From positions 1 through 38,017 of the IMG/VR virus record IMGVR_UViG_3300022072_000041: a stretch of 38,017 bases of DNA. The stretch is one strand, 5' to 3'. The stretch comes from a virus. Positions within the stretch are counted from its first letter, which is position 1; every line of letters begins with the position of its first letter. The position numbers and the translations under genes are program-made. The notes under the pieces were generated by a model. That model ran no database searches and was not told the origin of the DNA. It saw only the letters and a program-made list of their open reading frames with translations. Below, piece by piece: positions 9,721-31,939 of this stretch.

Positions 9721-11673
9721 TCATCGCACAGGTTTCAGGATTTCTTCTACGCGAGCAATCAGTGCTTTGTTTTTGCTGTATTTTGCCCCCTCTCTGACCA
9801 GCGTTGCGGCGGGAATAGGCATTCCTGACACCATAAATCCACCCATAGCGTCCAGCGCAACCATAAGCGCAGACGTAGTTCCTGGTGCGTTTACCGCGCC
9901 CGGTGGTGCCGTGTAGATCACTCGCGCTATCTCGGCTAGGTCGCGCATAATCTGCGCCTGCTTCTTGCCGTACAACGCTTCAAGTTTGCCGCGCCTGTCC
10001 AGTTCAGCTATTTTCTTGGACAATTTGTCAGGCGACAGTAGTGGTAGACCTCTGGAGTCGCTGCCGCTTCCCGACAGAGATGACTGCTTGATGTTGTCAA
10101 TCAACTGAGCCTTAAGGTCTTGCCATGCTTGTTTGCCTTCTGAGCCGCCCTTCAGCAGCGTAACGCGCAGTTTGTTTATTTCTTCAATCGAAGAATCAAG
10201 TATGACTTTTTTAAACACGTCCTCAAACGCGATGGTTCGCTCGCTGGTGCCTTTTTTCTCAGCCAAAAGTCGCTTGGTAATACCCACGTTTTCAAATTCT
10301 TGAGCAAATTTTGCTCGCGCCTTACGGGCGTCCCGATAGATTGGGCCACCGCTGTTCTCGGTTGCATCATCAATTGCTTTGATCGCCATACGTCTTATGC
10401 GAGCTTCTTTAGGGGCGTATATGTCAGTAAACTCATTGACATCTTGCCGCAGTAGCTCCGCGTCGTTGAGTGCTATAGTGCCGGGCGAATAAGACCCGTC
10501 ATCATTTTTAATAGCCGCGCCAATTCTGACAATTTCCCTAGAAATGTCTGTGCTGTTGCCCGCGTTTCTATGTTTATCAAGCAGGGCCATCAACTCGGGC
10601 ATGGTCACCATCTCTACCGGGGCCAACGTCTCACCGGCCTCACGCGCCTGCTCGTACAGATTGTCAACTTTCTTTTTCTGAACCTTCATTCTAGTGACTA
10701 GCGCCCGGTCAACTGCTTGTCCGATATCTCGGTCTTCGACGCTACGCGGCCCAATCGTTTCAAACAAGTAATCGAAATTTTGTTGCAACGCCGCACTTTG
10801 ATTTTCTGTCCGCTCGCGCAGCCGTCTCCCCAGTTCTGGGTTTTTTGCCAACTCCTTCTCATCCCGCAGCAGCTCAAAGTCTCGCGCAGCCTGCCCCAAT
10901 GTCAGGCCGGTCTCACCCTCAAACTTGACGGGCATGCTTTCAGCAATTGCTACCCGACGCAGTGATTCAGGCGTCTGCGCTGCACCAACGCTCCTGGCAG
11001 CAGTATCAGGCGCACGACGGTCTGGCATCATAGTCGCAGCTCGTTCTGTAGCGCCTGCAAGTGACGGGGCTACTGTCGGTGCAGCGGCACCCGCCAGTCT
11101 ACCTGCAGTCATCCCTAATGCGCTTGTCGCTGGCCCCATAAACGGAGTACCTACAGCGCCAGCTAAATCTCCAATGGCTTGCACGTTACGCTGACCAGTT
11201 CGAGACCTTGGCTCATAGGTGCTTCGCTGCATTTCCATCATGGAAGCGTCGCGTATCCGTTTAGCAGCCTCTGCTGTACCAAGCTGACCGCTCTCAATCT
11301 CTTTAGCTAGAGTGTCGAGAAATCCAGCAACTCCACCGACAAGGCCAGTAGTTGCAGCAGTACCCATAGTTAGAGCTGTCTCTGCAGCACCCATTATCTC
11401 GCTTTCGGCAAATGGCCCTTGAGGCACAGGCTCTGATGGTGGCTGTCGCACTTGAACACCCATGCCGCCAGCAAGCTCTTGCCCAGGTATTTCTACAGCC
11501 GACTCCATGCCGCCGAACTGTGGCGCTTGTATTGGCTGCTGTGGCGCTGCCTGCTGCTGTGGCTGGTATAGATCAGCGGCAGCTTGCATGATCTGCGCTT
11601 CGTCTGCCCCATCCGGGCCTTCAATTTCTAGGATTGAGCCGTCAGGTGCTTGAACTTTATAAATTGTTGCCAT
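9721..11673 (-). CDS. Large ejection protein, P22 gp16-like position
   Basis: A 650-aa virion protein, the last gene of the leftward structural operon, in the slot of P22 gp16. The N-terminus MATIYKVQAPDGSILEIEGP is the short strand module found at the start of many phage internal or injected proteins, followed by a Gln/Pro-rich linker (residues 37-52) and a GMGVQV peptide at 70-75. Residues about 90-130 hold a glycine/alanine-rich amphipathic stretch that could contact membrane. The remainder (about 230-560) is long, charged and helical. It is probably ejected to help DNA cross the cell envelope. Assigned by context and composition, not by a firm family match. Confidence 0.75.
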   Translation of the reverse strand: MATIYKVQAPDGSILEIEGPDGADEAQIMQAAADLYQPQQQAAPQQPIQAPQFGGMESAVEIPGQELAGGMGVQVRQPPSEPVPQGPFAESEIMGAAETALTMGTAATTGLVGGVAGFLDTLAKEIESGQLGTAEAAKRIRDASMMEMQRSTYEPRSRTGQRNVQAIGDLAGAVGTPFMGPATSALGMTAGRLAGAAAPTVAPSLAGATERAATMMPDRRAPDTAARSVGAAQTPESLRRVAIAESMPVKFEGETGLTLGQAARDFELLRDEKELAKNPELGRRLRERTENQSAALQQNFDYLFETIGPRSVEDRDIGQAVDRALVTRMKVQKKKVDNLYEQAREAGETLAPVEMVTMPELMALLDKHRNAGNSTDISREIVRIGAAIKNDDGSYSPGTIALNDAELLRQDVNEFTDIYAPKEARIRRMAIKAIDDATENSGGPIYRDARKARAKFAQEFENVGITKRLLAEKKGTSERTIAFEDVFKKVILDSSIEEINKLRVTLLKGGSEGKQAWQDLKAQLIDNIKQSSLSGSGSDSRGLPLLSPDKLSKKIAELDRRGKLEALYGKKQAQIMRDLAEIARVIYTAPPGAVNAPGTTSALMVALDAMGGFMVSGMPIPAATLVREGAKYSKNKALIARVEEILKPVR

Positions 11674-11675
11674 GA

Positions 11676-13058
11676 TTATGGCCCTGGGCTTTGGCTTATG
11701 AGTTTAAATCCTGGAGTTTGTGCGCCAGGAACTTGAACCCCCATGCCTGCAGCGGAACTTCGACCCCTGGCTGCAGCAGTGTTGGCTCCAATATCGCCGT
11801 ACTTGTTTTGCAAAAACTCTTGAGCCTTGTTGGTCAGCTCTTTTATGGTGGCGATGTTATTTTTTAGTCGCTCGCTACTCTGGCGCAGAGACAGGCTCTT
11901 AAGCGCACCAGCCAATCGGTTCCCCTCTGGGCCACTCAATGCCCCCATTCCCTTCATCTTGGGAATCTGGGTTAGGAATACTTGATCCTGAAGCGTTTTA
12001 ATAGTCTCCTGATAGTCAGCCACGGGCTGGTTCCATGTCGCGTTGTACCATGCGTCACCTCCTTCTAGCGTGCCAGTTGAAGCTTCACGGACGTTCTGAA
12101 ATGGTATTCCCATTGTGGTTATCTTTTGCTCTCCCAATGCCTCCAGATCCTCAACGGTACTCATCATGGTATCCACGTTTAGCTGGGCTGTTTCTACCTC
12201 GCTGGCTTTCTCAATAGTCGCGTTATCTCGTGCAATTTGAGCGTTATTAAGGTCGCTTTCCAGCTTTTGAATAGATAGTTCGCTTGTCGCTTGATCTCTT
12301 GCGTTTATCAGGTTAGCTATGCGCTTGTTCTGCTTTGCAATTTTTGGATCAGTTATCAATGAGCTGATATCAAATCCTTTTGACGATGCTTCTGCGGCAG
12401 CCAATGACTCTGCAAATTTTGCGTCGATAGCTGCTTTCGCTGCTTCTGCAGTGGCTTTCTTTTTCAACATGGGCTGCAATTCGTTTGCGCGTCGAATGTT
12501 TGCTAACTCGGCCATCAGAGTAGGGAGCTTTTCTGGCGCAACTACACCGGCAGACATGATCAATCCTAATTTTGCACCTTCGGGGCTAGATTGGATGTTT
12601 AATATCTGCGCTTCTAGTGCGGCGGCCTCTTCATCATTGCCAGAAGCCTTTGCGGCATCTGCCCTCTCCTGAGCAATTTTAATAGCAGCCTCTGGGCGAT
12701 TAGCCTCTACCGCTGCCAGAAGTTGAGTATAAAACGAGTAAGAAGTCTTTTGCTGCGCCTCGTTGAGCATGTCCCACCGTGGCTTGATTGACTCGCTAAA
12801 CATTGGGAAATCAACCAGAACCCCCTTAACCTGATCTGCTGTCGGGTTTGGGCCAAGACTCGAAACGGCTTGCTGGAACTGTCTCTGCTTGTCCTGGGCC
12901 TTCCTGTACTCATCAACCTTCATCTGGTTCAGCTCAAAGTTCTGCTGACCAATTGCCTGTTGCTGTTTCGCTGCTTGAATAGCTCCAGCATCCTTAAAGC
13001 CCTGCATGGCCATAGAAAGCGGGTTTGCTGTCTGATAACTTGAATAATCTAGTGCCAT
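11676..13058 (-). CDS. Ejection protein, P22 gp20-like
   Basis: A 460-aa protein, largely helical and Ala/Gln/Glu-rich, beginning MALDYSSYQTANPLSMAMQGFKD, with long coiled-coil-like stretches (residues about 35-65 and 195-320). It lies between the gp7-like and gp16-like proteins, as gp20 does in P22, and such DNA transfer proteins are packaged inside the head and ejected ahead of or with the genome. The C-terminus carries GMGVQVPGAQTPGF (438-451), related to a peptide in two other virion proteins of this phage. It ends two bases before the next start. No catalytic motif seen. Confidence 0.78.
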   Translation of the reverse strand: MALDYSSYQTANPLSMAMQGFKDAGAIQAAKQQQAIGQQNFELNQMKVDEYRKAQDKQRQFQQAVSSLGPNPTADQVKGVLVDFPMFSESIKPRWDMLNEAQQKTSYSFYTQLLAAVEANRPEAAIKIAQERADAAKASGNDEEAAALEAQILNIQSSPEGAKLGLIMSAGVVAPEKLPTLMAELANIRRANELQPMLKKKATAEAAKAAIDAKFAESLAAAEASSKGFDISSLITDPKIAKQNKRIANLINARDQATSELSIQKLESDLNNAQIARDNATIEKASEVETAQLNVDTMMSTVEDLEALGEQKITTMGIPFQNVREASTGTLEGGDAWYNATWNQPVADYQETIKTLQDQVFLTQIPKMKGMGALSGPEGNRLAGALKSLSLRQSSERLKNNIATIKELTNKAQEFLQNKYGDIGANTAAARGRSSAAGMGVQVPGAQTPGFKLISQSPGP

Positions 13059-13070
13059 GATGGTTTCCTA

Positions 13071-13847
13071 TTATCCTGGTAGAACAGCACCCGGCGCACC
13101 GGGAACAGTGACATAACCTGCTGAAGTTGACGGTGGCGGTGTTGCTGTAGTAGCAAACGGGCCATAACCCATCGCTCCAAGGCCGCCCAAATACCCAACA
13201 GACCCAGCAACATTACCCCACGCTTGACCCCTAGCGAGCTGTGCCTGTGCCTGTGCTTGGCCAGTCTGAGCGTTTAAGTTGCCAATGTTAGACGCCATAT
13301 TCATGCCTGCCGCACCCTGACCCGCTGCAGACGCTTGACCCATTGTGGCAAGGTTCTGAGCTGCGTTGCCGCCGAAAGTGACCATGCCGCCCAGCTTATT
13401 ATATTTGTCTTCGATCATTTGAGATAGAACCGCTGGCCTGAATTGAGCCAGTGCTGCCTGGATATTTCCACCACGAAGGCCACCAGTTGCTGATGCGTTC
13501 TGTAGCATCGCGTTCTCGCCTTGGCGAACATGCTCCATGTACAACGGTGACTGCTCGATTCGATTGATAGCTTCCTGCTGCGCTTCTGGGCCAAACATTC
13601 CGTTTAATGCTTGCTGCTCATTAAGTGCCGGTTGAGCAACATCTGAATAAGATGACAACTGTCTGAGCGCCGGTGTTCCAGCATCAACGTATGGCTTCAG
13701 TGTGCGCTGCATAGCCGCAAATTGAGCGCGTTGCTCTTCAATGCTTGCACCAGATGACTCCTGCTGCGCCTGTGCCGCCTTGCTCGCGGATCTTGATGAC
13801 ATAACCCCGCCAACAACGGCTGACCCGACAATTGCTGCTGCTACCAT
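13071..13847 (-). CDS. Ejection protein, P22 gp7-like DNA transfer protein
   Basis: A 258-aa protein with the recognisable gp7-type core: an N-terminal hydrophobic glycine-rich helix (AAAIVGSAVVGGVMSS), the helical SIEEQRAQFAAMQRTLKPYV, then SPLYMEHVRQGENAMLQNAS, TGGLRGGNIQAALAQFRP and the GGMVTFGGNAAQNLATMGQ repeat-like Ala/Gly/Gln region. It ends in a Pro/Gly-rich tail (GYVTVPGAPGAVLPG). In P22, gp7 is carried in the head and ejected at infection with gp16 and gp20. Its position between the accessory enzyme pair and the gp20-like gene agrees. Confidence 0.88.
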   Translation of the reverse strand: MVAAAIVGSAVVGGVMSSRSASKAAQAQQESSGASIEEQRAQFAAMQRTLKPYVDAGTPALRQLSSYSDVAQPALNEQQALNGMFGPEAQQEAINRIEQSPLYMEHVRQGENAMLQNASATGGLRGGNIQAALAQFRPAVLSQMIEDKYNKLGGMVTFGGNAAQNLATMGQASAAGQGAAGMNMASNIGNLNAQTGQAQAQAQLARGQAWGNVAGSVGYLGGLGAMGYGPFATTATPPPSTSAGYVTVPGAPGAVLPG

Positions 13848-24133: not shown

Positions 24134-25399
24134 TTAGCTTTGGCCGAACAACACGACACCAGCCATCTCGGGGTTGCACATGGTCACACCAAAGAAAGTA
24201 TCAAGGCGATACTTGGTGACGCGCGTGTCAATCTCGTACTGCTTGGTCAACGTCAGCTCGATGCCCTGCTCTGAAGTGTAGCGAAGCATGGTGGCGCCGT
24301 CTGGGTTGCCAGCGTACCGACCTGGCATCAACTCGATGGAGTCTTTGTGCCAGAATGGGTTGATGGCAGCAGCGGTCACGTTCAGCCAAACGACAGCAGC
24401 AGTGTTGGACACGCTGTTGGCGACGCAGTTCTGGTATTGAACCTCTGGATCAGTCGGCGTGGTTGACGCAGAGATGATCGGGGGGCTGATAACCAGGCTG
24501 GTGCTAGTGGGCACTGAGATAACTCGGAAAGTCTTGAGCTGGCCAGTGTCCTGCTTGGTGATGTGGTGAACGCTGTTGATGCCGGCGATGGTGAAGCAGT
24601 CGCCTGCAACAACGCCAGTGTTGGTGGTGCAGCTAATGGTCTGGGTGCGGTTATCGACGTTGATCTGGCCGCCAACAGAAGTGCTGGTGGACTGGGGAAC
24701 GTAGTCGATGTTGGCGCCATCAGTATCAATAGTGATAGCGGTGGTTTGAGCCAGGATGCGGTTAGCGTAGTCCATCTTGTACGTTTCAAAGCCAGACACA
24801 GTGCCAACGTAAGCCTTCTCATAGGCTGTTGTGGGCTTCTGGTTCATAGTCTGACGGGAAGCCAGGTTGCTGGCCATACCGTTGTAGTCGCGGCTTGACA
24901 GCGCCAGGTAACGATTGTCGGACATAACGCCCAGCTCGTTAAAGGCAGCATCGCACTCAGCAACGTCATCGAAGCCAGAGGCTGCAGCGGTACGCTTAAT
25001 GACCACGGTGCCCTGTGCTGCTGCGACGTTCATGACAGCGATGTTAATGTCAGATGCCAGACGCTGCTGGGCACCCTTCGCGATGTTGCCTTCCTGCAGG
25101 GCGTCGCGCAGTTGCTTGGCGTCCAGGGTCCAGGGGGCAGTCTTGTTGAAGCCCAGGGTTGCAGGTACAGACAGTTGCGTCACGTCCTGGTACAGCGAGC
25201 TGATGTTGGTGCGTGGGGCACCGTCAACAGACGACATGATGTAGGGCATTGGGCGCCAGATGGTGTCGTTTGCACGCTCCATCATCTGTGAGTCGGATGT
25301 GTAAACAGACACGTTACGGCTAAGGACCAGTGCGTCCTCAAAACCCTCGGTCATCTGCTCAAAGGCGACCCTTTCTTCCTTGGAAAATTCGTTAGCCAT
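24134..25399 (-). CDS. Major capsid (coat) protein, P22 gp5-like
   Basis: A 421-aa HK97-fold coat protein of the P22 gp5 family, close to P22 in length (430). Family features are the N-terminal FSKEERVAFEQMTEGFEDAL, then SRNVSVYTSDSQMMERANDT and IWRPMPYIMSS, the YLALSSRDYNGMASNLASRQ region, and the C-terminal VTKYRLDTFFGVTMCNPEMA before the final GVVLFGQS. Residues about 225-330 correspond to the inserted I-domain region of P22 coat. AGGA lies upstream of the ATG. It follows the scaffold gene by 27 bases, as in P22. Confidence 0.93.
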   Translation of the reverse strand: MANEFSKEERVAFEQMTEGFEDALVLSRNVSVYTSDSQMMERANDTIWRPMPYIMSSVDGAPRTNISSLYQDVTQLSVPATLGFNKTAPWTLDAKQLRDALQEGNIAKGAQQRLASDINIAVMNVAAAQGTVVIKRTAAASGFDDVAECDAAFNELGVMSDNRYLALSSRDYNGMASNLASRQTMNQKPTTAYEKAYVGTVSGFETYKMDYANRILAQTTAITIDTDGANIDYVPQSTSTSVGGQINVDNRTQTISCTTNTGVVAGDCFTIAGINSVHHITKQDTGQLKTFRVISVPTSTSLVISPPIISASTTPTDPEVQYQNCVANSVSNTAAVVWLNVTAAAINPFWHKDSIELMPGRYAGNPDGATMLRYTSEQGIELTLTKQYEIDTRVTKYRLDTFFGVTMCNPEMAGVVLFGQS

Positions 25400-25426: not shown

Positions 25427-26305
25427 TTAACTACCCGCACGCTTGCTGCGCTTGTAGGCGGTAACCTTTGAATAGTCGCCGCTTTTTTCCGCTTGAGCGC
25501 GTAATCGTTCTAAGTTTGAGTCAACCGTTCCTGACTTCATGGCCTTGCCTGTGATAGTCGTTTCCGGTTTCGTGCTTGCCTTTCTGTTCGTTACTTTCAA
25601 CTGTGTCTCCAGCTTCGCAACAGCGAAGGCAAACTTCACGGGGTCTTTTATGGATGCAATTTCCTTAGCCTTCTTGGGGTTCTTCCCCAGGGCGTATACG
25701 ACCAGCGCCGGGTTGTCAGCGCCCTGCAGGATCATACCCTGCTGGGTGTTGCTCAACTCATCCTGCACAACTGTCTCGGCGTCTTCAAAGTCCTTGACCT
25801 TGAGCGTCTTGCGGTGTTCGCCGTAGGTGGCCAGGGTGGCGTTCCAGGCGTCTTGTTGACTACGCCGTTCTGCTTCCTGCCTTTCCTGCTGCGCTTCAAC
25901 CGCTTTTTTCCGGTCAAACCAGTCGGTCAGTTGCTGCTCGTATAAATCAGAATCGTAATCAGCGGCCTCAATGGTCGGCTTCTTGCCCAGTTCTACGGTC
26001 TTTGGTTGTACCGTGCTGGAAAGTTTGGCCAGTTGGTCCTTGAGTTGCTTATTCTCCCTCTGCTGCTCTCTGTGGCTCTTGCGTAGGTCTCGGACCCACT
26101 CAGGTGCCTTTGCATCGTCCTCTGGAGGTGGCGACTCCCCCGCAATCTCAATGACAACATCGTCCTCATCACCTTCTTCGTCTTCTGAGTCTACGTCGGC
26201 GCCAGCCTCGTGGGCTTCTTCCTCATAGTTTTCCTCAGCTTCTGATTCTATTTCGGTGTCTAGTTCTTCGTCATCATCCTCAATAATTTCTGCCTGGTTA
26301 TTCAT
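25427..26305 (-). CDS. Scaffolding protein, P22 gp8-like
   Basis: A 292-aa, largely helical and highly charged protein immediately upstream of the coat gene. Residues 1-65 are extremely acidic (DDDEELDTEIESEAEENYEE and similar). Residues about 68-100 and 120-155 are coiled-coil-like (WVRDLRKSHREQQRENKQLK; DRKKAVEAQQERQEAERRSQ). The C-terminus is basic (YSKVTAYKRSKRAGS), matching the P22 arrangement in which a basic C-terminal helix-turn-helix binds the coat. It directs procapsid assembly and leaves the head before or during packaging. A promoter candidate lies upstream in the 100-base gap. Confidence 0.88.
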   Translation of the reverse strand: MNNQAEIIEDDDEELDTEIESEAEENYEEEAHEAGADVDSEDEEGDEDDVVIEIAGESPPPEDDAKAPEWVRDLRKSHREQQRENKQLKDQLAKLSSTVQPKTVELGKKPTIEAADYDSDLYEQQLTDWFDRKKAVEAQQERQEAERRSQQDAWNATLATYGEHRKTLKVKDFEDAETVVQDELSNTQQGMILQGADNPALVVYALGKNPKKAKEIASIKDPVKFAFAVAKLETQLKVTNRKASTKPETTITGKAMKSGTVDSNLERLRAQAEKSGDYSKVTAYKRSKRAGS

Positions 26306-26406: not shown

Positions 26407-26907
26407 CTAGGGACGTTGGTACTGTACGCCACCAGGTTGGAACCCAAGGTATCGCTGCTCAGAATAGAAGTCAGGGTTCCTGAACCGCAACGGCTGGTTG
26501 GCCAGTTGCCCGGCCATGCCCATGTCTTGCTGGGCCGGCATAGCCTGCTGCGGATTGATTTGCTGCTGGTACTGCTGTTGCATGTACTGCTGGTACTGCA
26601 TCGGGTCCATCGGCTGGCCACCTGCAGGCACCTGCTGTTGTTGCTGCTGATACTGCTGCTGCATCTGCCGCTGGTACTCGTAAGGGTCCACCTGCTGTTG
26701 CTGTGGCGCCATTTGCTGTTGGAACTGGCCCAGCATGTACTGCTGGTACTGCATCGGGTCCATCTGCTGTTGCTGCTGTGCCGGGTTGTTCTGGGTGGCG
26801 TTGTAGTAGCCAATGTTGATCGGCGGGATGCTACCAGCAAAGCTGTTCTGCGTTGACTGCATCATGTTGCCGAAATTGTCGCCGCCGTACATTGCATTTC
26901 CAAACAT
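26407..26907 (-). CDS. Gln-rich low-complexity virion-region protein, 166 aa
   Basis: About 30% glutamine (50 of 166 by my count), with Pro, Met and Tyr. It begins MFGNAMYGGDNFGNMMQSTQ and contains two exact MDPMQYQQYM units and several QQQYQQQ runs at residues about 43-120; the C-terminal 35 residues are more complex (NQPLRFRNPDFYSEQRYLGF). The gene lies between the 956-aa protein and scaffold, where P22 has no equivalent. It is probably disordered; such Q/P/Y-rich proteins can phase-separate or act as flexible head components. No family is recognised. CAG-type repeats create long but spurious frames on the other strand. Confidence 0.8.
   Translation of the reverse strand: MFGNAMYGGDNFGNMMQSTQNSFAGSIPPINIGYYNATQNNPAQQQQQMDPMQYQQYMLGQFQQQMAPQQQQVDPYEYQRQMQQQYQQQQQQVPAGGQPMDPMQYQQYMQQQYQQQINPQQAMPAQQDMGMAGQLANQPLRFRNPDFYSEQRYLGFQPGGVQYQRP
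26580..26611 (-). repeat. 32-bp exact direct repeat, copy 1
   Basis: Identical to 26733-26764, 153 bp (51 codons) apart and in frame. It encodes the MDPMQYQQYM unit of the Gln-rich protein. Exact nucleotide identity suggests recent duplication or gene conversion. Confidence 0.85.
26733..26764 (-). repeat. 32-bp exact direct repeat, copy 2
   Basis: Second copy of the repeat at 26580-26611, encoding the first MDPMQYQQYM unit. Recombination between the copies would delete 51 codons in frame. Confidence 0.85.
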
Positions 26908-26927
26908 TGTGATACCTTTTGGGTTGT

Positions 26928-29798
26928 TTATATTGGGCTGAGATCCATTAGCGCCTTGGCAAGCTCTTTTTCTCGCTCACCCAGGTAGTCGTAGCCTTGC
27001 CTCATGGCTCCAAGTATGTAGCTGTCACCTGCCGCCTTTTTAATCGCTGGGACATAGGGCGCGATGGCGCCACCGATGCCCTGCATCATCTGCTCGCCGT
27101 ACTGCGGACCCAGTTCAGTCCTGGGCTGATAGTTGAAGTAGTCTTCAGTCTCGCGCCTACCCTGGGCCATTTCTTCGGCGCTGTAGTTAACGCCTGGCAC
27201 ATACCTGTCGGCAACGTATCGGCCAATGGCACCAGGCGCCGACAATAACGGACCGGCCATAGCCGACACAACGTCAGCAGACAGGTCGGCAACCCCGGCG
27301 GTCTTCATGATACCGCTGAGTAACTGCTGCTGCACGCTGGTAAAAAGGTCTGGTTCAGGCTGCGTGCGGATCGAGTCGACAAAGTCCCGGTTAGCTTGTT
27401 GCATCAGGTCACCGCCAGTCGGCGCCAACATTGCTTCTTCGTCCTCGGCGGTGGGTGGCATCCTGACGCCCATGCCGCCCAGCCCAGCTTGTGCGTTCGC
27501 TTCTATCTGTGACCAGTTGTCCTGCAGTTGCTGTGCCTGCTCTTGTGGAACCTCAGACAACAGCTCGGCCTTGACTTTTTCTGGCGCTACCCCCGCAGCC
27601 ACAAGGCCAGACCCTAAAACCAAAGACCACAGCATTTTCCCGTTCTCATCAACTGGCGGCAGATCGTGAACACCACGCTCTGCGTTTATCTGATAGACCT
27701 CGCTTGGGGTTAGTATTCGGTTGACCTTCATATCCCCAGCAATCAACCAATCGCCAGTCATGTTGGGGTTAGTCTTGTATCGGTAATAGCCGCCTTCTGG
27801 TATCTGGTCGGTTATCTGCGCCGTTCTCGGTATCGGTTTGCCCGCCTTGCTGTACTCCATTCGAGAATCTGCAACAGACTGCCAATCAACGTCTGCTGGC
27901 ATTTCCACTTCGGCCCATACCTGATCGGCTGGTCGGTAATCCGGGGCTTTCAATGCGCTATCAGATTTGCCGCCGATGTGCGTGGCGACTGGTGCATCAC
28001 CTGCGTGCCAGCCTGGCCGATAAGCCAACGGACCAATGCTCGACTTAACCTTGCCAGCGTCAGTTAGAGAACCAGACTCGGCCGGGTTCCATTCGCCCAT
28101 TTTCACTGGCTTGTTGGCGTTTACAAATAATGGAAACAACTCATCAGTGTTGCCTCCTTTTGTCCTGAACAGCTTGTATGCCTTAATGGTGTTCGTGTAC
28201 TTGTCGGCTTGCTCTGGACTAATCTGCCCCTGCTCAACCATTCGAGCAACACCCTCCGCCTGTGGGCTGGTGACTTTTTCATAAGCTGATGCAAGGCGCT
28301 TAATTCCAGAACTAATCGGCCCTGCCTGGGCAGGTTCTGTGTACCCTATACCCAGAGCGCCAAGGAACCCAGTAGAGAATCCGGCAGCAATGAGGTTTCT
28401 TCCGGCGTCAGATCTTCCGGCAGTTTGCCCTCCGGGTACGCCAGAGAAAGATAATTCTCCAGTGTTGGCTCCAAGCCCTCGCGGACCAGATGCTGCTGTA
28501 TTGAGTCCAGCGGCCCAATCTGGATCTGGGATACCGCCTGCTTTGTCAAGGATAAGTTCACGCGCCAACCCCTTTGAAATTTTTCCATTATTATACAGTT
28601 CCCATATACCATTAATCTCGGAAACGTTACCTTTTGTTTTGAATGATGCAGGGAACAACGACCGCACGGTTTCCCATGTAACCGACTGCAACTCCCTTGG
28701 CTGGATACCAAGTTCGCGAGCCGCAATTCGGTACGCGTCAGCGTGCAATCCGTATGTTCCTCTGGCGCCAGTTTGTGCTGATGACGCCACACCTTTGGTT
28801 GTGCCAAACGCTGCCCCTACCGGGACACTGTTGCCGCTAAGTGGCATAATCTGGTCAGCAGCAACAGCATGTGTGTCGATGGTAACGTCACCCAGCTCAG
28901 GGTTGTCGATGGCGTATGTTGGGTCAGAGATATTGTTGTAAAAATTCCGAACTTTGTGTGCGCCGCCCATTTGCCGGCTAATGTTCTCAATTGAAGGGTC
29001 TTCTATTACTCGAATCGCCTTGGCTATTTCTGAATTACTTCCCCAAGCTGTGGTGTTCGGTTTCCCCGTTTTGTCCGAAAACGCTTGCCCAACGCGATCG
29101 CCGTTAGGGTTTATCATCTGATAACCACGGTCGTTATGGGTCTGATCCAATGAGCGAACATACATAGCTTTCTGGACATCGTCCAGTTCATCGAATGGCA
29201 TATTCGCCATAGCTTCAATGTTATTTGCAAATTTTGGATCTGAGTAAATTTCTCTGGCCGTTGCCAATGAGTCGGCGTCAAGCATTTTACCGGCAGATTT
29301 CTTGTATCCGTTGATGACACGCTCTGCCAGGCTGACGTTTTGATACCAGTCTTTTTGAGGTGATAGTGCGGCCAGCACGGCGCTTGCCGACTCGTGGCTT
29401 ATGCCGTACTTCTCTGCCAATTCGCCCGCTATCCTGTTGGCACCGACGTACCAATTTTTCCCAATGTTTCGCACGGCTGGGGGTGCCTGATTATAAAGCC
29501 ATATCAGGTTGTCAACGGCTTCGGCAGTAAATGCATCAGCCCGACCAGCAGCCGTGGTCGCGTCGGTTTTGACTGTCGGGTATCTGGACACAAACTCGGT
29601 GTTTATGTCGAACGCTTTAGGCGCGTCCTCCAATGATTTGCGATTTATAATAAGATTGTCTGTTAGAAAATTTTCCGTTGCCGATTTTGCTGTCGGCACT
29701 CGGGTTGATATGCGCTGACCACGATATGCTTGCGCAGCCTCATCACCAGCATCAGCACGTTTAGCCAGCTCCGCAAGCGCCTTTGTAAGTTTAGACAT
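26928..29798 (-). CDS. Multidomain polyvalent-type virion protein with HhH-GPD glycosylase-like domain
   Basis: A 956-aa protein between portal and Gln-rich/scaffold genes. Residues about 90-420 look like the phage DUF7178/HhH-GPD-like domain: YVGANRIAGELAEKYGIS and VLAALSPQKDWYQNV, then GGAHKVRNFYNN (278-289) and VTIDTHAVAA (305-314). The last two align with the EndoIII hairpin (GVGRKTANVV) and VDTH, placing K282 and D308 at the catalytic Lys and Asp. Residues about 555-705 form a second domain (LAYRPGWHAGDAPVATHIGG) typical of large injected phage proteins. A GMGVRMPP peptide is at 775-782, and the rest is helical. It is probably packaged and ejected. Glycosylase activity is inference. The start overlaps the portal stop (TAATG). 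Confidence 0.75.
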   Translation of the reverse strand: MSKLTKALAELAKRADAGDEAAQAYRGQRISTRVPTAKSATENFLTDNLIINRKSLEDAPKAFDINTEFVSRYPTVKTDATTAAGRADAFTAEAVDNLIWLYNQAPPAVRNIGKNWYVGANRIAGELAEKYGISHESASAVLAALSPQKDWYQNVSLAERVINGYKKSAGKMLDADSLATAREIYSDPKFANNIEAMANMPFDELDDVQKAMYVRSLDQTHNDRGYQMINPNGDRVGQAFSDKTGKPNTTAWGSNSEIAKAIRVIEDPSIENISRQMGGAHKVRNFYNNISDPTYAIDNPELGDVTIDTHAVAADQIMPLSGNSVPVGAAFGTTKGVASSAQTGARGTYGLHADAYRIAARELGIQPRELQSVTWETVRSLFPASFKTKGNVSEINGIWELYNNGKISKGLARELILDKAGGIPDPDWAAGLNTAASGPRGLGANTGELSFSGVPGGQTAGRSDAGRNLIAAGFSTGFLGALGIGYTEPAQAGPISSGIKRLASAYEKVTSPQAEGVARMVEQGQISPEQADKYTNTIKAYKLFRTKGGNTDELFPLFVNANKPVKMGEWNPAESGSLTDAGKVKSSIGPLAYRPGWHAGDAPVATHIGGKSDSALKAPDYRPADQVWAEVEMPADVDWQSVADSRMEYSKAGKPIPRTAQITDQIPEGGYYRYKTNPNMTGDWLIAGDMKVNRILTPSEVYQINAERGVHDLPPVDENGKMLWSLVLGSGLVAAGVAPEKVKAELLSEVPQEQAQQLQDNWSQIEANAQAGLGGMGVRMPPTAEDEEAMLAPTGGDLMQQANRDFVDSIRTQPEPDLFTSVQQQLLSGIMKTAGVADLSADVVSAMAGPLLSAPGAIGRYVADRYVPGVNYSAEEMAQGRRETEDYFNYQPRTELGPQYGEQMMQGIGGAIAPYVPAIKKAAGDSYILGAMRQGYDYLGEREKELAKALMDLSPI

Positions 29799-31939
29799 TA
29801 CTGGCCACCCTGCGCGATGCGGATCAGCTCCTCGGTTGACATGCTCGCCATGTCAGGCTCGCGCTGCGGCATCTGCCGGGGTTGCTGCGGCATCTGGCCG
29901 CCCATCATGCTGCTCATCTGGCGTACCTGCTCCGCTGCCTTGATCATACGCCCCTGGTCCTCTGTCTTGATCTTGCTCAAGGTTTCCATCGTGTTGGCCT
30001 CGGTCTCTGACGCCTTGGCAACCGACAGCAGGGTGTCCGCCTTGGTCTTCTCGGCCTTGGCTGTCTCGTTCAGCGCGGCTGCCTTCAGGTACTCGGCATT
30101 GGCGTCTGGTTGTGCGTTCTGTGCAGCTTCGGCCAGGTCTGCGGCTTCCTGTTCGGATGGCTGGATGACGCCCATCTTGACCAGCTTGGTGCGGTAATAC
30201 TTACGCACATCGCCCAGGCCCTCGCCTTCCATGTTCATCATCGCCATCGCGTTGAGAATGGCCAGGTTCTCCGGGTCTTGTGTCATCTGCATCATGGCAG
30301 TCAGCGACCGCACCGTGCTGGCACGCTTGCTGGATGACGATGGGCCAACGTCAACGGACAGGTCGAACTTGGCATCGCGCAGGTCGTTCTCGTACTCGAT
30401 CTCGCCGGTCTCTGGGTTCAGCATTGGCTTGCCCAGCTCAACCTGGCCGGCCTCGTACTCGCTGTTGAGCGTCTTCATCTTGCGCCCGCTCTCGACCAGG
30501 ATGTCCTTGGCCATTGACAGCCAGACCTCGCCTGATCGCTTGATGGCCTTGCTCATGTTGCTCATGTAGATGAAAGCCTGCATGTCCAGCCTAGACTGCA
30601 CCAGCTCGATGGCCTTGCCGCTGACGTTGGGTTGTAGCTGCTCACCGGACTCCTGGCGCCCAAGCAACTCCTGCATGTCCATGTCGGTGATCTGCAGCAG
30701 CGCCGCCATTGCAGGCGGGATCTGTGGCGACTTGGTGTAGCCAATCGGGCCAGACGCCATAGCGGCGCCGGTCGCGTCGGTGATGGGGTTGACCAGCAGG
30801 TACGGGTAGTCGCGCAGGTTGTCCTCGGCCCACATCATCTCATAGCCCGCCACCTGCTCGGGTAGCATGATGGGCTTCTCGACCGTGGACAGGGCGCTGA
30901 TCTCGGCCAGCTTGGATAGCTGCATGTTCTTCAGGCGCTGCACGTCCTTGGCTAGGCGCACGTGGCCCATGCACCGCTCGACGTTGTCAACGAACCACCG
31001 CTTGCCGTAGACCATGACGATGGGGATGCATTGCCCGGCGATGTAGCCACAATCCTCCAAGATCGCGCCGCCAGACATGATGTACTTGTGGACCTTCTTC
31101 TTCTTGGTCTTCTTCTCGCCCGTCTTGCGAGTGCCGATAGCCATCAGCGTGTCTTCAAGCATCTCATCGTTCTCGAAGTCGGCGTCGGTGTACCGCTCCT
31201 CCTCGCCTTCTAGGGTGGTGTAGATGTGGACCGTGTGCCGCACTTCCTCGACCTTGTACAGCTCGGCGACATAGACCACGTCGCCAGCAGACCAGTCGAA
31301 CTCGGTCATGGTGATGTCCTTGGGCCACGATGCCGGTGAGTCGCCCCAGGTCTCCTCGTACTCTGACTCGGTCATGCTGGTCAGCACATAGCACCGCTTG
31401 GCGTCTGACTTGTCCTGGCGCTTGGCACCAAGGTCAAAGAAAACCGTGCTGTCGGCGTCGTAGATAGGCTCGATGCTGACACGCTGACGGTCATCGTCGT
31501 CGTCTTCATCGTCCTCGTAGACTGCACGCAGGCGCCAGGCACCTATGCCACCGCCGACCGCTTCCTCGAACGCGTTGTCGTATGCCTCATCGGCGCTGCT
31601 GAACTCCTCGTCGGATCGGTATAGCCCGTCGCAGGTATCCGCCAGCTTGTCGTTCTCGGCTCCTTCCTTCGGGATGAAGTCAACCGTAATGCGGTTGTTG
31701 CGGTATTCGTTGATGATCCGCATGACGCTGAGATGGATCTTGTTGATCTCCATCTTGGGGCGGTTGGCGAACTGCTCATCGAGTGGACCTTCCCACTGGG
31801 CGCCGGCAATAGAATAGAACCGTCGGTCCTCCAGGCACTGCATTCGCTCATCGCGTACAGCGGACTGAATGTCGTCAAATTCGGTCAGCGCATCGGCGTG
31901 AACCGCCTGCAAGCGTTGTTCTTTAGATTGTCGTGCCAT
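29798..31939 (-). CDS. Portal protein, P22 gp1-like
   Basis: A 713-aa portal, close to P22 gp1 (725 aa). Family features are CLEDRRFYSIAGAQWEGPLD and NKIHLSVMRIINEYRNNRIT near the N-terminus, DNAFEEAVGGGIGAWRLRA followed by an Asp-rich insert (EDDEDDDDD), IEPIYDADSTVFFD, and a long C-terminal helical barrel region (LNETAKAEKTKADTLLSVAK onward) ending in a Met/Gln-rich tail. Twelve subunits form the DNA entry and exit ring and dock gp4. It follows terminase by 36 bases and overlaps the start of the 956-aa gene. Confidence 0.93.
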   Translation of the reverse strand: MARQSKEQRLQAVHADALTEFDDIQSAVRDERMQCLEDRRFYSIAGAQWEGPLDEQFANRPKMEINKIHLSVMRIINEYRNNRITVDFIPKEGAENDKLADTCDGLYRSDEEFSSADEAYDNAFEEAVGGGIGAWRLRAVYEDDEDDDDDRQRVSIEPIYDADSTVFFDLGAKRQDKSDAKRCYVLTSMTESEYEETWGDSPASWPKDITMTEFDWSAGDVVYVAELYKVEEVRHTVHIYTTLEGEEERYTDADFENDEMLEDTLMAIGTRKTGEKKTKKKKVHKYIMSGGAILEDCGYIAGQCIPIVMVYGKRWFVDNVERCMGHVRLAKDVQRLKNMQLSKLAEISALSTVEKPIMLPEQVAGYEMMWAEDNLRDYPYLLVNPITDATGAAMASGPIGYTKSPQIPPAMAALLQITDMDMQELLGRQESGEQLQPNVSGKAIELVQSRLDMQAFIYMSNMSKAIKRSGEVWLSMAKDILVESGRKMKTLNSEYEAGQVELGKPMLNPETGEIEYENDLRDAKFDLSVDVGPSSSSKRASTVRSLTAMMQMTQDPENLAILNAMAMMNMEGEGLGDVRKYYRTKLVKMGVIQPSEQEAADLAEAAQNAQPDANAEYLKAAALNETAKAEKTKADTLLSVAKASETEANTMETLSKIKTEDQGRMIKAAEQVRQMSSMMGGQMPQQPRQMPQREPDMASMSTEELIRIAQGGQ

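What the first reader, a model, noticed from the sequence alone, without database searches (positions are those of the whole stretch)
26928..29798. Virion-region protein joining an EndoIII-like DNA glycosylase signature to a polyvalent-type domain
The 956-aa protein is encoded between portal and scaffold regions, where P22 has no gene. Its N-terminal half shows a helix-hairpin-helix-like GGAHKVRNFYNN followed about 20 residues later by IDTHAVAA, the same order as GVGRKTANVV and VDTH in EndoIII, placing K282 and D308 in the catalytic positions. LAALSPQKDW resembles the EndoIII LLSAQ segment. A second domain near 555-705 and long helical regions fit the known theme of polyvalent proteins injected with phage DNA. 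A head-packaged glycosylase could repair the incoming genome, remove modified bases, or damage host or rival DNA. The domain homology is partly recognised by eye; packaging and activity are inferred.
Basis: partly seen in the sequence, partly recalled or inferred. Interest (0 to 1): 0.85.

Follow-up and report, generated by a model that had tools for sequence, protein, structure and literature searches.

The report
Phage-ejected protein carrying DNA glycosylase cassette
This phage gene makes a large protein, probably packed in the virus particle and shot into the cell with the DNA, whose front half is a base-cutting DNA-repair-type enzyme that sister phages swap for a different effector, so it reveals a new kind of cargo in phage injection proteins.

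Summary
The minus-strand ORF 26928-29798 encodes 956 aa, directly coupled to the portal gene (TAATG overlap). Residues 91-430 are Pfam DUF7178, a family of unknown function. A confident AlphaFold2 model (pLDDT 92.9) has the helix-hairpin-helix glycosylase fold: in a second look at 1000 PDB chains the top 16 are all 8-oxoguanine DNA glycosylases (Z 5.1-8.2), the next 2.5. K282 and D308 are invariant in 37 non-redundant relatives and 14 distant ones, and lie where catalytic Lys and Asp lie in OGG/EndoIII. No Fe-S cysteines: it is OGG/AGOG-like rather than EndoIII-like.

The protein is polyvalent. Relatives fuse DUF7178 to ART-PolyVal, RadC, GNAT and LPD domains. In a sister phage contig the same gene keeps its ends, but an ART-PolyVal-like domain replaces the glycosylase. 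Virion-type relatives are almost cysteine-free (11 in 112,667 residues), as are this genome's three ejection proteins and as reported for the injected N4 polymerase; stand-alone DUF7178 proteins have 1.5% Cys. Several lie among internal virion proteins. Ejection is therefore likely but not shown.

The 537-715 domain is real: weakly ART-like and DUF7666/RIIB-like, function open. Substrate and activity are untested. New variant of a known kind.

The parts
26928..29798 (-). 956-aa polyvalent protein gene; start overlaps the portal stop (TAATG)
28338..29735 (-). exchangeable glycosylase cassette, residues about 22-487
   Evidence: blastn boundaries in L004, L003, L088 (flanks kept, cassette absent) and L005/L006 (cassette kept); protein alignment
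28509..29528 (-). DUF7178 = HhH-GPD-type DNA glycosylase domain, residues 91-430
   Evidence: Pfam; AF2 pLDDT 92.9; PDB second look, top 16 rows all 8-oxoG glycosylases
29337..29372 (-). AALSPQKDWYQN, residues 143-154, end of the helix that corresponds to EndoIII LLSAQ; S146, W151, N154 invariant
28953..28955 (-). codon of K282, predicted catalytic lysine, second residue of the helix after the hairpin
   Evidence: invariant; DSSP of model; profile alignment puts it on the OGG catalytic Lys
28875..28877 (-). codon of D308, predicted catalytic aspartate, just before a helix
   Evidence: invariant; DSSP; profile alignment
27654..28190 (-). second conserved domain, residues 537-715 (phrog_30118), weakly ART-like / DUF7666-like
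26931..27611 (-). C-terminal helical tail, residues 730-956, shared with relatives that lack the second domain
   Evidence: L011, L012
29798..31939 (-). P22-type portal protein (context)
26407..26907 (-). Q/M/P-rich 166-aa ORF, cysteine-free (context)
25427..26305 (-). scaffolding protein (context)
   Evidence: phrog_648
24134..25399 (-). P22-type coat protein (context)
   Evidence: PF11651
13071..13847 (-). gp7-like DNA ejection protein, 0 Cys (comparison for the cysteine signature)
11676..13058 (-). ejection protein ('released from the phage upon host infection', phrog_2534), 0 Cys
9721..11673 (-). third candidate ejection protein by position, 0 Cys
   Evidence: assignment by gene order

Best explanation
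The gene encodes a polyvalent virion protein. It is translated late with the portal, packed in the head, and ejected into the cell with the DNA. Its N-terminal cassette (residues about 22-487) is an HhH-GPD-superfamily DNA glycosylase, most like the OGG/AGOG branch. It would flip a damaged or modified base out of DNA; D308 would help break the N-glycosidic bond and K282 would attack C1' to form a Schiff base, so it would act as a bifunctional glycosylase/AP lyase. The rest (484-956) is a carrier with a second domain of open function. The cassette is one of several exchangeable effectors (ART, GNAT, RadC in relatives), so it most likely acts on DNA in the first minutes of infection. Shown here: family, conservation, predicted fold, module swapping, context, cysteine depletion. 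Inferred: packaging, ejection, catalysis, substrate.
For: Fold: AF2 pLDDT 92.9/pTM 0.91. PDB second look: MjOgg Z 8.2 (187 aligned, 4.2 A), PaAGOG 7.7, hOGG1 7.0, CacOGG 6.6; all top 16 rows out of 1000 chains are 8-oxoG glycosylases, next row 2.5. Catalytic pair K282/D308 invariant, in the EndoIII/OGG positions: K after the hairpin, D before a helix. Profile alignment of stand-alone DUF7178 with HhH-GPD puts GPKV on GEKV and TVDVW on PVDVW (score 22.9 against 12.7 and 14.2 in controls). Polyvalence: fusions; ART-PolyVal-like domain in the same slot in L004. Virion context: between internal virion proteins in L024, next to TerL/portal in L010, L014, L030, next to peptidase or injection-transglycosylase in L039, L065, L080; same portal-X-scaffold/coat position in CRP-738 and CRP-212; E3 gp205 deposited as 'structural protein'. 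Cys: 11/112,667 in virion-type DUF7178 ORFs against 24/1602 stand-alone and 0.59% in neighbouring ORFs; the ejection proteins here also have 0. N4-type vRNAP, known to be injected, has no Cys, and authors link this to injection (PMC3915230).
Against: No significant sequence match to any characterised glycosylase profile. Foldseek alone gives E 0.1 for AGOG, and a Z of about 8 is modest for a helical protein. No virion mass spectrometry for this protein could be read. Scaffold is also Cys-free here although P22-type scaffold is not ejected, so lack of Cys is not proof. Substrate-binding residues were not compared in three dimensions. A large insertion (about 160-270) separates this group from known glycosylases.
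Confidence: 0.74

Rival explanations
1. Entry-time DNA repair: the ejected enzyme removes oxidised or otherwise damaged bases from the incoming phage genome, which cannot be repaired inside the particle.
For: Nearest folds are 8-oxoguanine glycosylases. Several annotated relatives are phages from sunlit water, such as roseophages and cyanophages. No base-modification genes were recognised among the ORFs read in this window.
Against: A lyase would nick incoming DNA. The slot is shared with ART-PolyVal and other conflict domains, which argues for a host-directed role. No substrate data.
Confidence: 0.35
2. Conflict weapon or counter-defence: the ejected enzyme excises modified bases from host, prophage or rival phage DNA, or otherwise damages host DNA.
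For: Swaps one-for-one with an ART-PolyVal-like domain in a sister phage and co-occurs with RadC, GNAT and ART. Glycosylases that attack modified DNA are known weapons on the bacterial side: Brig1, Brig2, Dag1/Dag2 (PMC13216743).
Against: No genetic or biochemical test. Stand-alone DUF7178 genes also occur outside virion modules in other phages, which fits repair equally well.
Confidence: 0.35
3. Glycosylase-type fold used for DNA binding or capsid structure only, or kept inside the producing cell and not ejected.
For: Only fold and conservation are known; scaffold is also Cys-free.
Against: K and D would not be expected to stay invariant across 51 diverse sequences in a purely structural domain; stand-alone forms exist; head-gene position and near-zero Cys fit ejection.
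Confidence: 0.12
4. The second domain (537-715) is an ADP-ribosyltransferase, making the protein a two-headed effector.
For: In the PDB second look nearly every row is an ART-fold protein (Arr, RES, PARP, DarT, ParT).
Against: Best Z only 4.8; Foldseek E about 1; no Pfam ART match; BFVD gives DUF7666 and RIIB proteins instead; no catalytic triad assigned; it is part of the constant carrier, not the swapped cassette.
Confidence: 0.3

Closest known systems
OGG/AGOG 8-oxoguanine DNA glycosylases (MjOgg, PaAGOG, hOGG1, CacOGG)
   Same: Predicted fold (Z up to 8.2), hairpin followed by the Lys-bearing helix, Asp before a helix, no Fe-S cluster
   Different: No significant sequence similarity; insertion at about 160-270; virion polyvalent context; 8-oxoG recognition untested
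Endonuclease III (Nth) and MutY
   Same: Order of LLSAQ-like, G-x-K hairpin and VDTH motifs
   Different: No C-x6-C-x2-C-x5-C; the protein has no cysteine at all
Pfam DUF7178 (PF23802), stand-alone phage 'glycosylases' (e.g. Shagrat 113, S-CRES3 gp63)
   Same: Same family over cut-off, same invariant W116, Y117, S146, W151, N154, K282, F286, D308, Q371, W375
   Different: Stand-alone forms are about 200 aa, mostly contain Cys, and lie outside the virion module where seen; deposited labels only, no characterisation found in the papers searched
Polyvalent proteins (Iyer et al. 2017, PMC5512222)
   Same: Large multidomain, exchangeable effector domains, encoded among virion genes; relatives carry ART-PolyVal, RadC and LPD22/23/38
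   Different: The word 'glycosylase' does not occur in that paper's main text; a DNA glycosylase is an additional effector type
HMO-2011-type roseophages CRP-738 gp40 and CRP-212 gp38
   Same: Gene between portal and coat; DUF7178 (gp40) or a relative of the C-terminal part (gp38)
   Different: gp40 has a different N-terminal part; gp38 matches only residues 441-718, not the glycosylase

Membership tests
HhH-GPD DNA glycosylase superfamily | All-alpha HhH-GPD fold | tested here: met
   AF2 model pLDDT 92.9; top 16 rows glycosylases, Z 5.1-8.2 against 2.5 next; Z modest, model not experiment
HhH-GPD DNA glycosylase superfamily | Catalytic Asp before a helix, following the hairpin | tested here: met
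   D308 invariant in 37 + 14 sequences; helix starts at the next residue
HhH-GPD DNA glycosylase superfamily | Lys after the hairpin (bifunctional members) | tested here: met
   K282 invariant; aligned to the OGG Lys
HhH-GPD DNA glycosylase superfamily | Profile-level sequence homology | tested here: inconclusive
   No Pfam hit of note other than DUF7178; hhalign P 0.013-0.022 in the expected register with small alignments
HhH-GPD DNA glycosylase superfamily | Base excision / AP-lyase activity | not testable with these tools
   needs purified protein
Endonuclease III / MutY | [4Fe-4S] cluster, C-x6-C-x2-C-x5-C | tested here: not met
   0 Cys in 956 aa; motif in none of 37 relatives
DUF7178 (PF23802) | Score over Pfam gathering cut-off | tested here: met
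   103.9 bits against 27
Polyvalent proteins | Large multidomain protein with exchangeable effector domains | tested here: met
Polyvalent proteins | Encoded in the virion/packaging module | tested here: met
Polyvalent proteins | Packaged and injected | not testable with these tools
   only indirect: near-zero Cys, context, deposited label of E3 gp205
ADP-ribosyltransferase superfamily (second domain) | ART fold | tested here: inconclusive
   rows nearly all ART but Z at most 4.8; BFVD points to DUF7666/RIIB
ADP-ribosyltransferase superfamily (second domain) | Catalytic triad (R-S-E or H-Y-E) | not tested

The most novel reading that the evidence does not exclude
Phages package a DNA glycosylase/AP lyase in the virion as an exchangeable effector and eject it with the genome to excise modified or damaged bases from DNA at the moment of entry: a phage-side counterpart of the bacterial defence glycosylases, and a DNA-base-cutting effector class not named in the polyvalent-protein survey read here.
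Probability: 0.45. Interest if true: 0.85.

Novelty: new variant of a known kind. Interest (0 to 1): 0.64.

Why it matters
It gives a testable function to Pfam DUF7178, a family spread over phages of roseobacters, cyanobacteria, mycobacteria, rhodococci, gordoniae, streptomycetes and others, and adds DNA glycosylase to the set of effectors that phages appear to inject. If active, it would mean that base excision begins at genome entry with an enzyme from the particle, either repairing virion DNA or attacking modified DNA. The near absence of cysteine, against 1.5% in stand-alone members of the same domain family, is a simple sequence marker that could help recognise ejected proteins in metagenomic phages.

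Tried and rejected
Sequence search of the PDB with the protein and with profiles of both domains: nothing useful. NCBIfam: nothing. EndoIII membership: rejected, no Fe-S cysteines; EndoIII and MutY chains were not among the PDB rows listed, which is not evidence of absence. hhalign of the large virion-type alignments against HhH-GPD alignments gave only noise; only the compact stand-alone alignment aligned in register. Search for virion proteomics: the Rhodococcus phage E3 proteome paper is not held under the id tried; Myrna gp102 is not mentioned in the capsid paper; the HMO-2011-type paper has no mass spectrometry. DUF7178 is named in none of the papers held. S-CREM1's pyrimidine-dimer glycosylase is a different, Conserved-Domain-recognised enzyme and was set aside. 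One translation in a wrong frame was redone. A first script to collect OGG sequences failed and was redone.

Full report
What was checked. The window belongs to a 38,017-base virus record with a P22-type head module on the minus strand: TerL, portal, the 956-aa ORF, a Q-rich ORF, scaffold, coat. The ORF lies exactly at 26928-29798 on the minus strand. Its start overlaps the portal stop (TAATG), so it is probably translated together with the portal.

The N-terminal domain. Pfam places residues 91-185 and a second stretch in DUF7178 (103.9 bits, cut-off 27). Relatives were collected from IMG/VR (212 stretches, 80 kept) and from bacterial genomes. Among 37 non-redundant relatives K282, D308, T309, H310, S146-P147-Q148-K149-D150, W151 and others never vary. 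Fourteen distant DUF7178 domains from phages of cyanobacteria, mycobacteria, rhodococci, gordoniae, microbacteria, Maribacter, roseobacters and an enrichment virus, 22-36% identical to the window, were aligned. Only 10 of 164 gap-free columns are invariant, and K282 and D308 are two of them.

Fold. AlphaFold2 on the relatives' alignment gave pLDDT 92.9 and pTM 0.91. K282 is the second residue of the helix that follows a four-residue hairpin, and D308 directly precedes the next helix; this is the arrangement of the catalytic Lys and Asp in EndoIII and OGG (established knowledge of these structures). Foldseek alone put AGOG first at a non-significant E of 0.11. The VIA second look at its 1000 best chains gave sixteen 8-oxoguanine glycosylases on top (Z 8.2 to 5.1: MjOgg, AGOG, OGG1, CacOGG) and then a drop to 2.5. 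Taken alone Z 8 is modest, but the clean separation and a single enzyme class make the fold assignment convincing. Profile alignment of the compact stand-alone members against EndoIII/MutY/OGG sequences fetched from genomes is weak (P 0.013-0.022) but in the predicted register, with K on K of GVGEKVADC and D on D of FPVDVW; reversed and unrelated controls score 12.7 and 14.2 against 22.9. There is not one cysteine in 956 residues, so the Fe-S cluster of EndoIII/MutY is absent.

Polyvalence and module swapping. In relatives DUF7178 sits in proteins of 540 to 4,200 residues together with ART-PolyVal, RadC, GNAT, LPD22, LPD23 (below its cut-off) and LPD38 domains. Nucleotide comparison gives the module borders directly. 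Contig L004 matches the window at about 80% over the portal (29734-31512) and over 26654-28339, but 28339-29734 is replaced. The L004 protein keeps the N-terminal start and residues 484-955 (86% identical) and carries an ART-PolyVal-like domain in place of the glycosylase (E 4.8e-6, 27.8 bits, slightly under Pfam's cut-off of 31.2). L003 and L088 stop matching at the same point. L005/L006 keep the glycosylase cassette (84% identical) but have an extra insert after residue 498 that looks GNAT-like to the eye (not tested). The glycosylase is thus an exchangeable cassette on a constant carrier.

Virion association. In L024 the gene lies between two internal virion proteins (phrog_418 and phrog_6651). 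In L010, L014 and L030 it is next to TerL or portal. In L039, L065 and L080 it is next to large proteins with endolysin/peptidase or tail-injection transglycosylase domains. CRP-738 gp40 and CRP-212 gp38 hold the same portal-to-coat position. Rhodococcus phage E3 gp205, a DUF7178 protein, is deposited as 'structural protein'; the proteome paper was not available.

Cysteine signature. The 86 ORFs with this N-domain (redundant) hold 11 Cys in 112,667 residues (0.01%). Twenty-one chosen ones hold 8 in 39,319. Eight stand-alone DUF7178 proteins hold 24 in 1,602 (1.5%), and 81 neighbouring ORFs 0.59%. In the window the three candidate ejection proteins have none, whereas portal, coat, TerL, tail and replication proteins have 0.8-3.3%. 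Published precedent: the injected N4-type virion RNA polymerases contain no cysteine, which the authors connect with passage through the tail (PMC3915230; PMC4837373). The scaffold is also Cys-free, and Skog 165 and Myrna gp102 contain a few, so the marker is supportive, not conclusive.

The second domain. Residues 537-715 form a separately conserved domain (phrog_30118; 268 stretches in IMG/VR), modelled at pLDDT 87.5. The PDB second look returned almost only ADP-ribosyltransferase-fold proteins, but with Z at most 4.8. The viral model library pointed to DUF7666 and RIIB proteins. No Pfam family matches. An ART-related fold is possible; function is left open.

How it most likely works. The protein is made late, packed in the head and ejected. 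The glycosylase then flips and removes a base and, through K282, can cut the abasic site. Which base, and whose DNA, is unknown. Repair of the incoming genome and attack on modified DNA are about equally likely. The sharing of its slot with ART-type effectors favours a conflict role, while the OGG-like fold favours repair. Host glycosylases such as Brig1, Brig2 and Dag1/2 show that this chemistry is used as a weapon in phage-host conflict (PMC13216743).

Novelty. The glycosylase nature of DUF7178 has been guessed by annotators ('glycosylase', 'DNA glycosylase', 'N-glycosylase/DNA lyase'), but Pfam lists it as unknown and no held paper names it. The word glycosylase does not occur in the main text of the polyvalent-protein survey. 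A virion-type, exchangeable glycosylase effector therefore appears to be a new variant of a known kind.

Noticed in passing
window 26407-26907 (-): A 166-aa ORF between the polyvalent gene and the scaffold is extremely rich in Q, M and P and has no Cys; conserved in sister contigs (L002 and others), no convincing family match.
   Followed up: no
L004:1688-5053: Sister contig whose gene in the same place carries an ART-PolyVal-like domain instead of the glycosylase: a natural swap experiment.
   Followed up: partly
L006:5193-11681: Version of 2156 aa with a long N-terminal extension and an insert after the glycosylase that looks like a GNAT acetyltransferase; the second domain is about 98% identical to the window's although no portal homologue was found nearby, suggesting recent module transfer.
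   Followed up: partly
window 9721-13847 (-): All three P22-type candidate ejection proteins are cysteine-free while most other structural proteins are not; a possible general marker for ejected proteins.
   Followed up: partly
L131, L138, L142, L158, L160: The second domain (phrog_30118) also exists as 200-290-aa proteins, with almost no Cys among the small ORFs, and has weak similarity to DUF7666/RIIB proteins.
   Followed up: partly
L168 (Virus Rctr197k gene 173): Contains two tandem DUF7178 domains in one large protein, both keeping the Lys and Asp.
   Followed up: no
L164:10660-13167 (CRP-738 gp40): Between portal and coat, DUF7178 preceded by a region that looks methyltransferase-like to the eye.
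   Followed up: no
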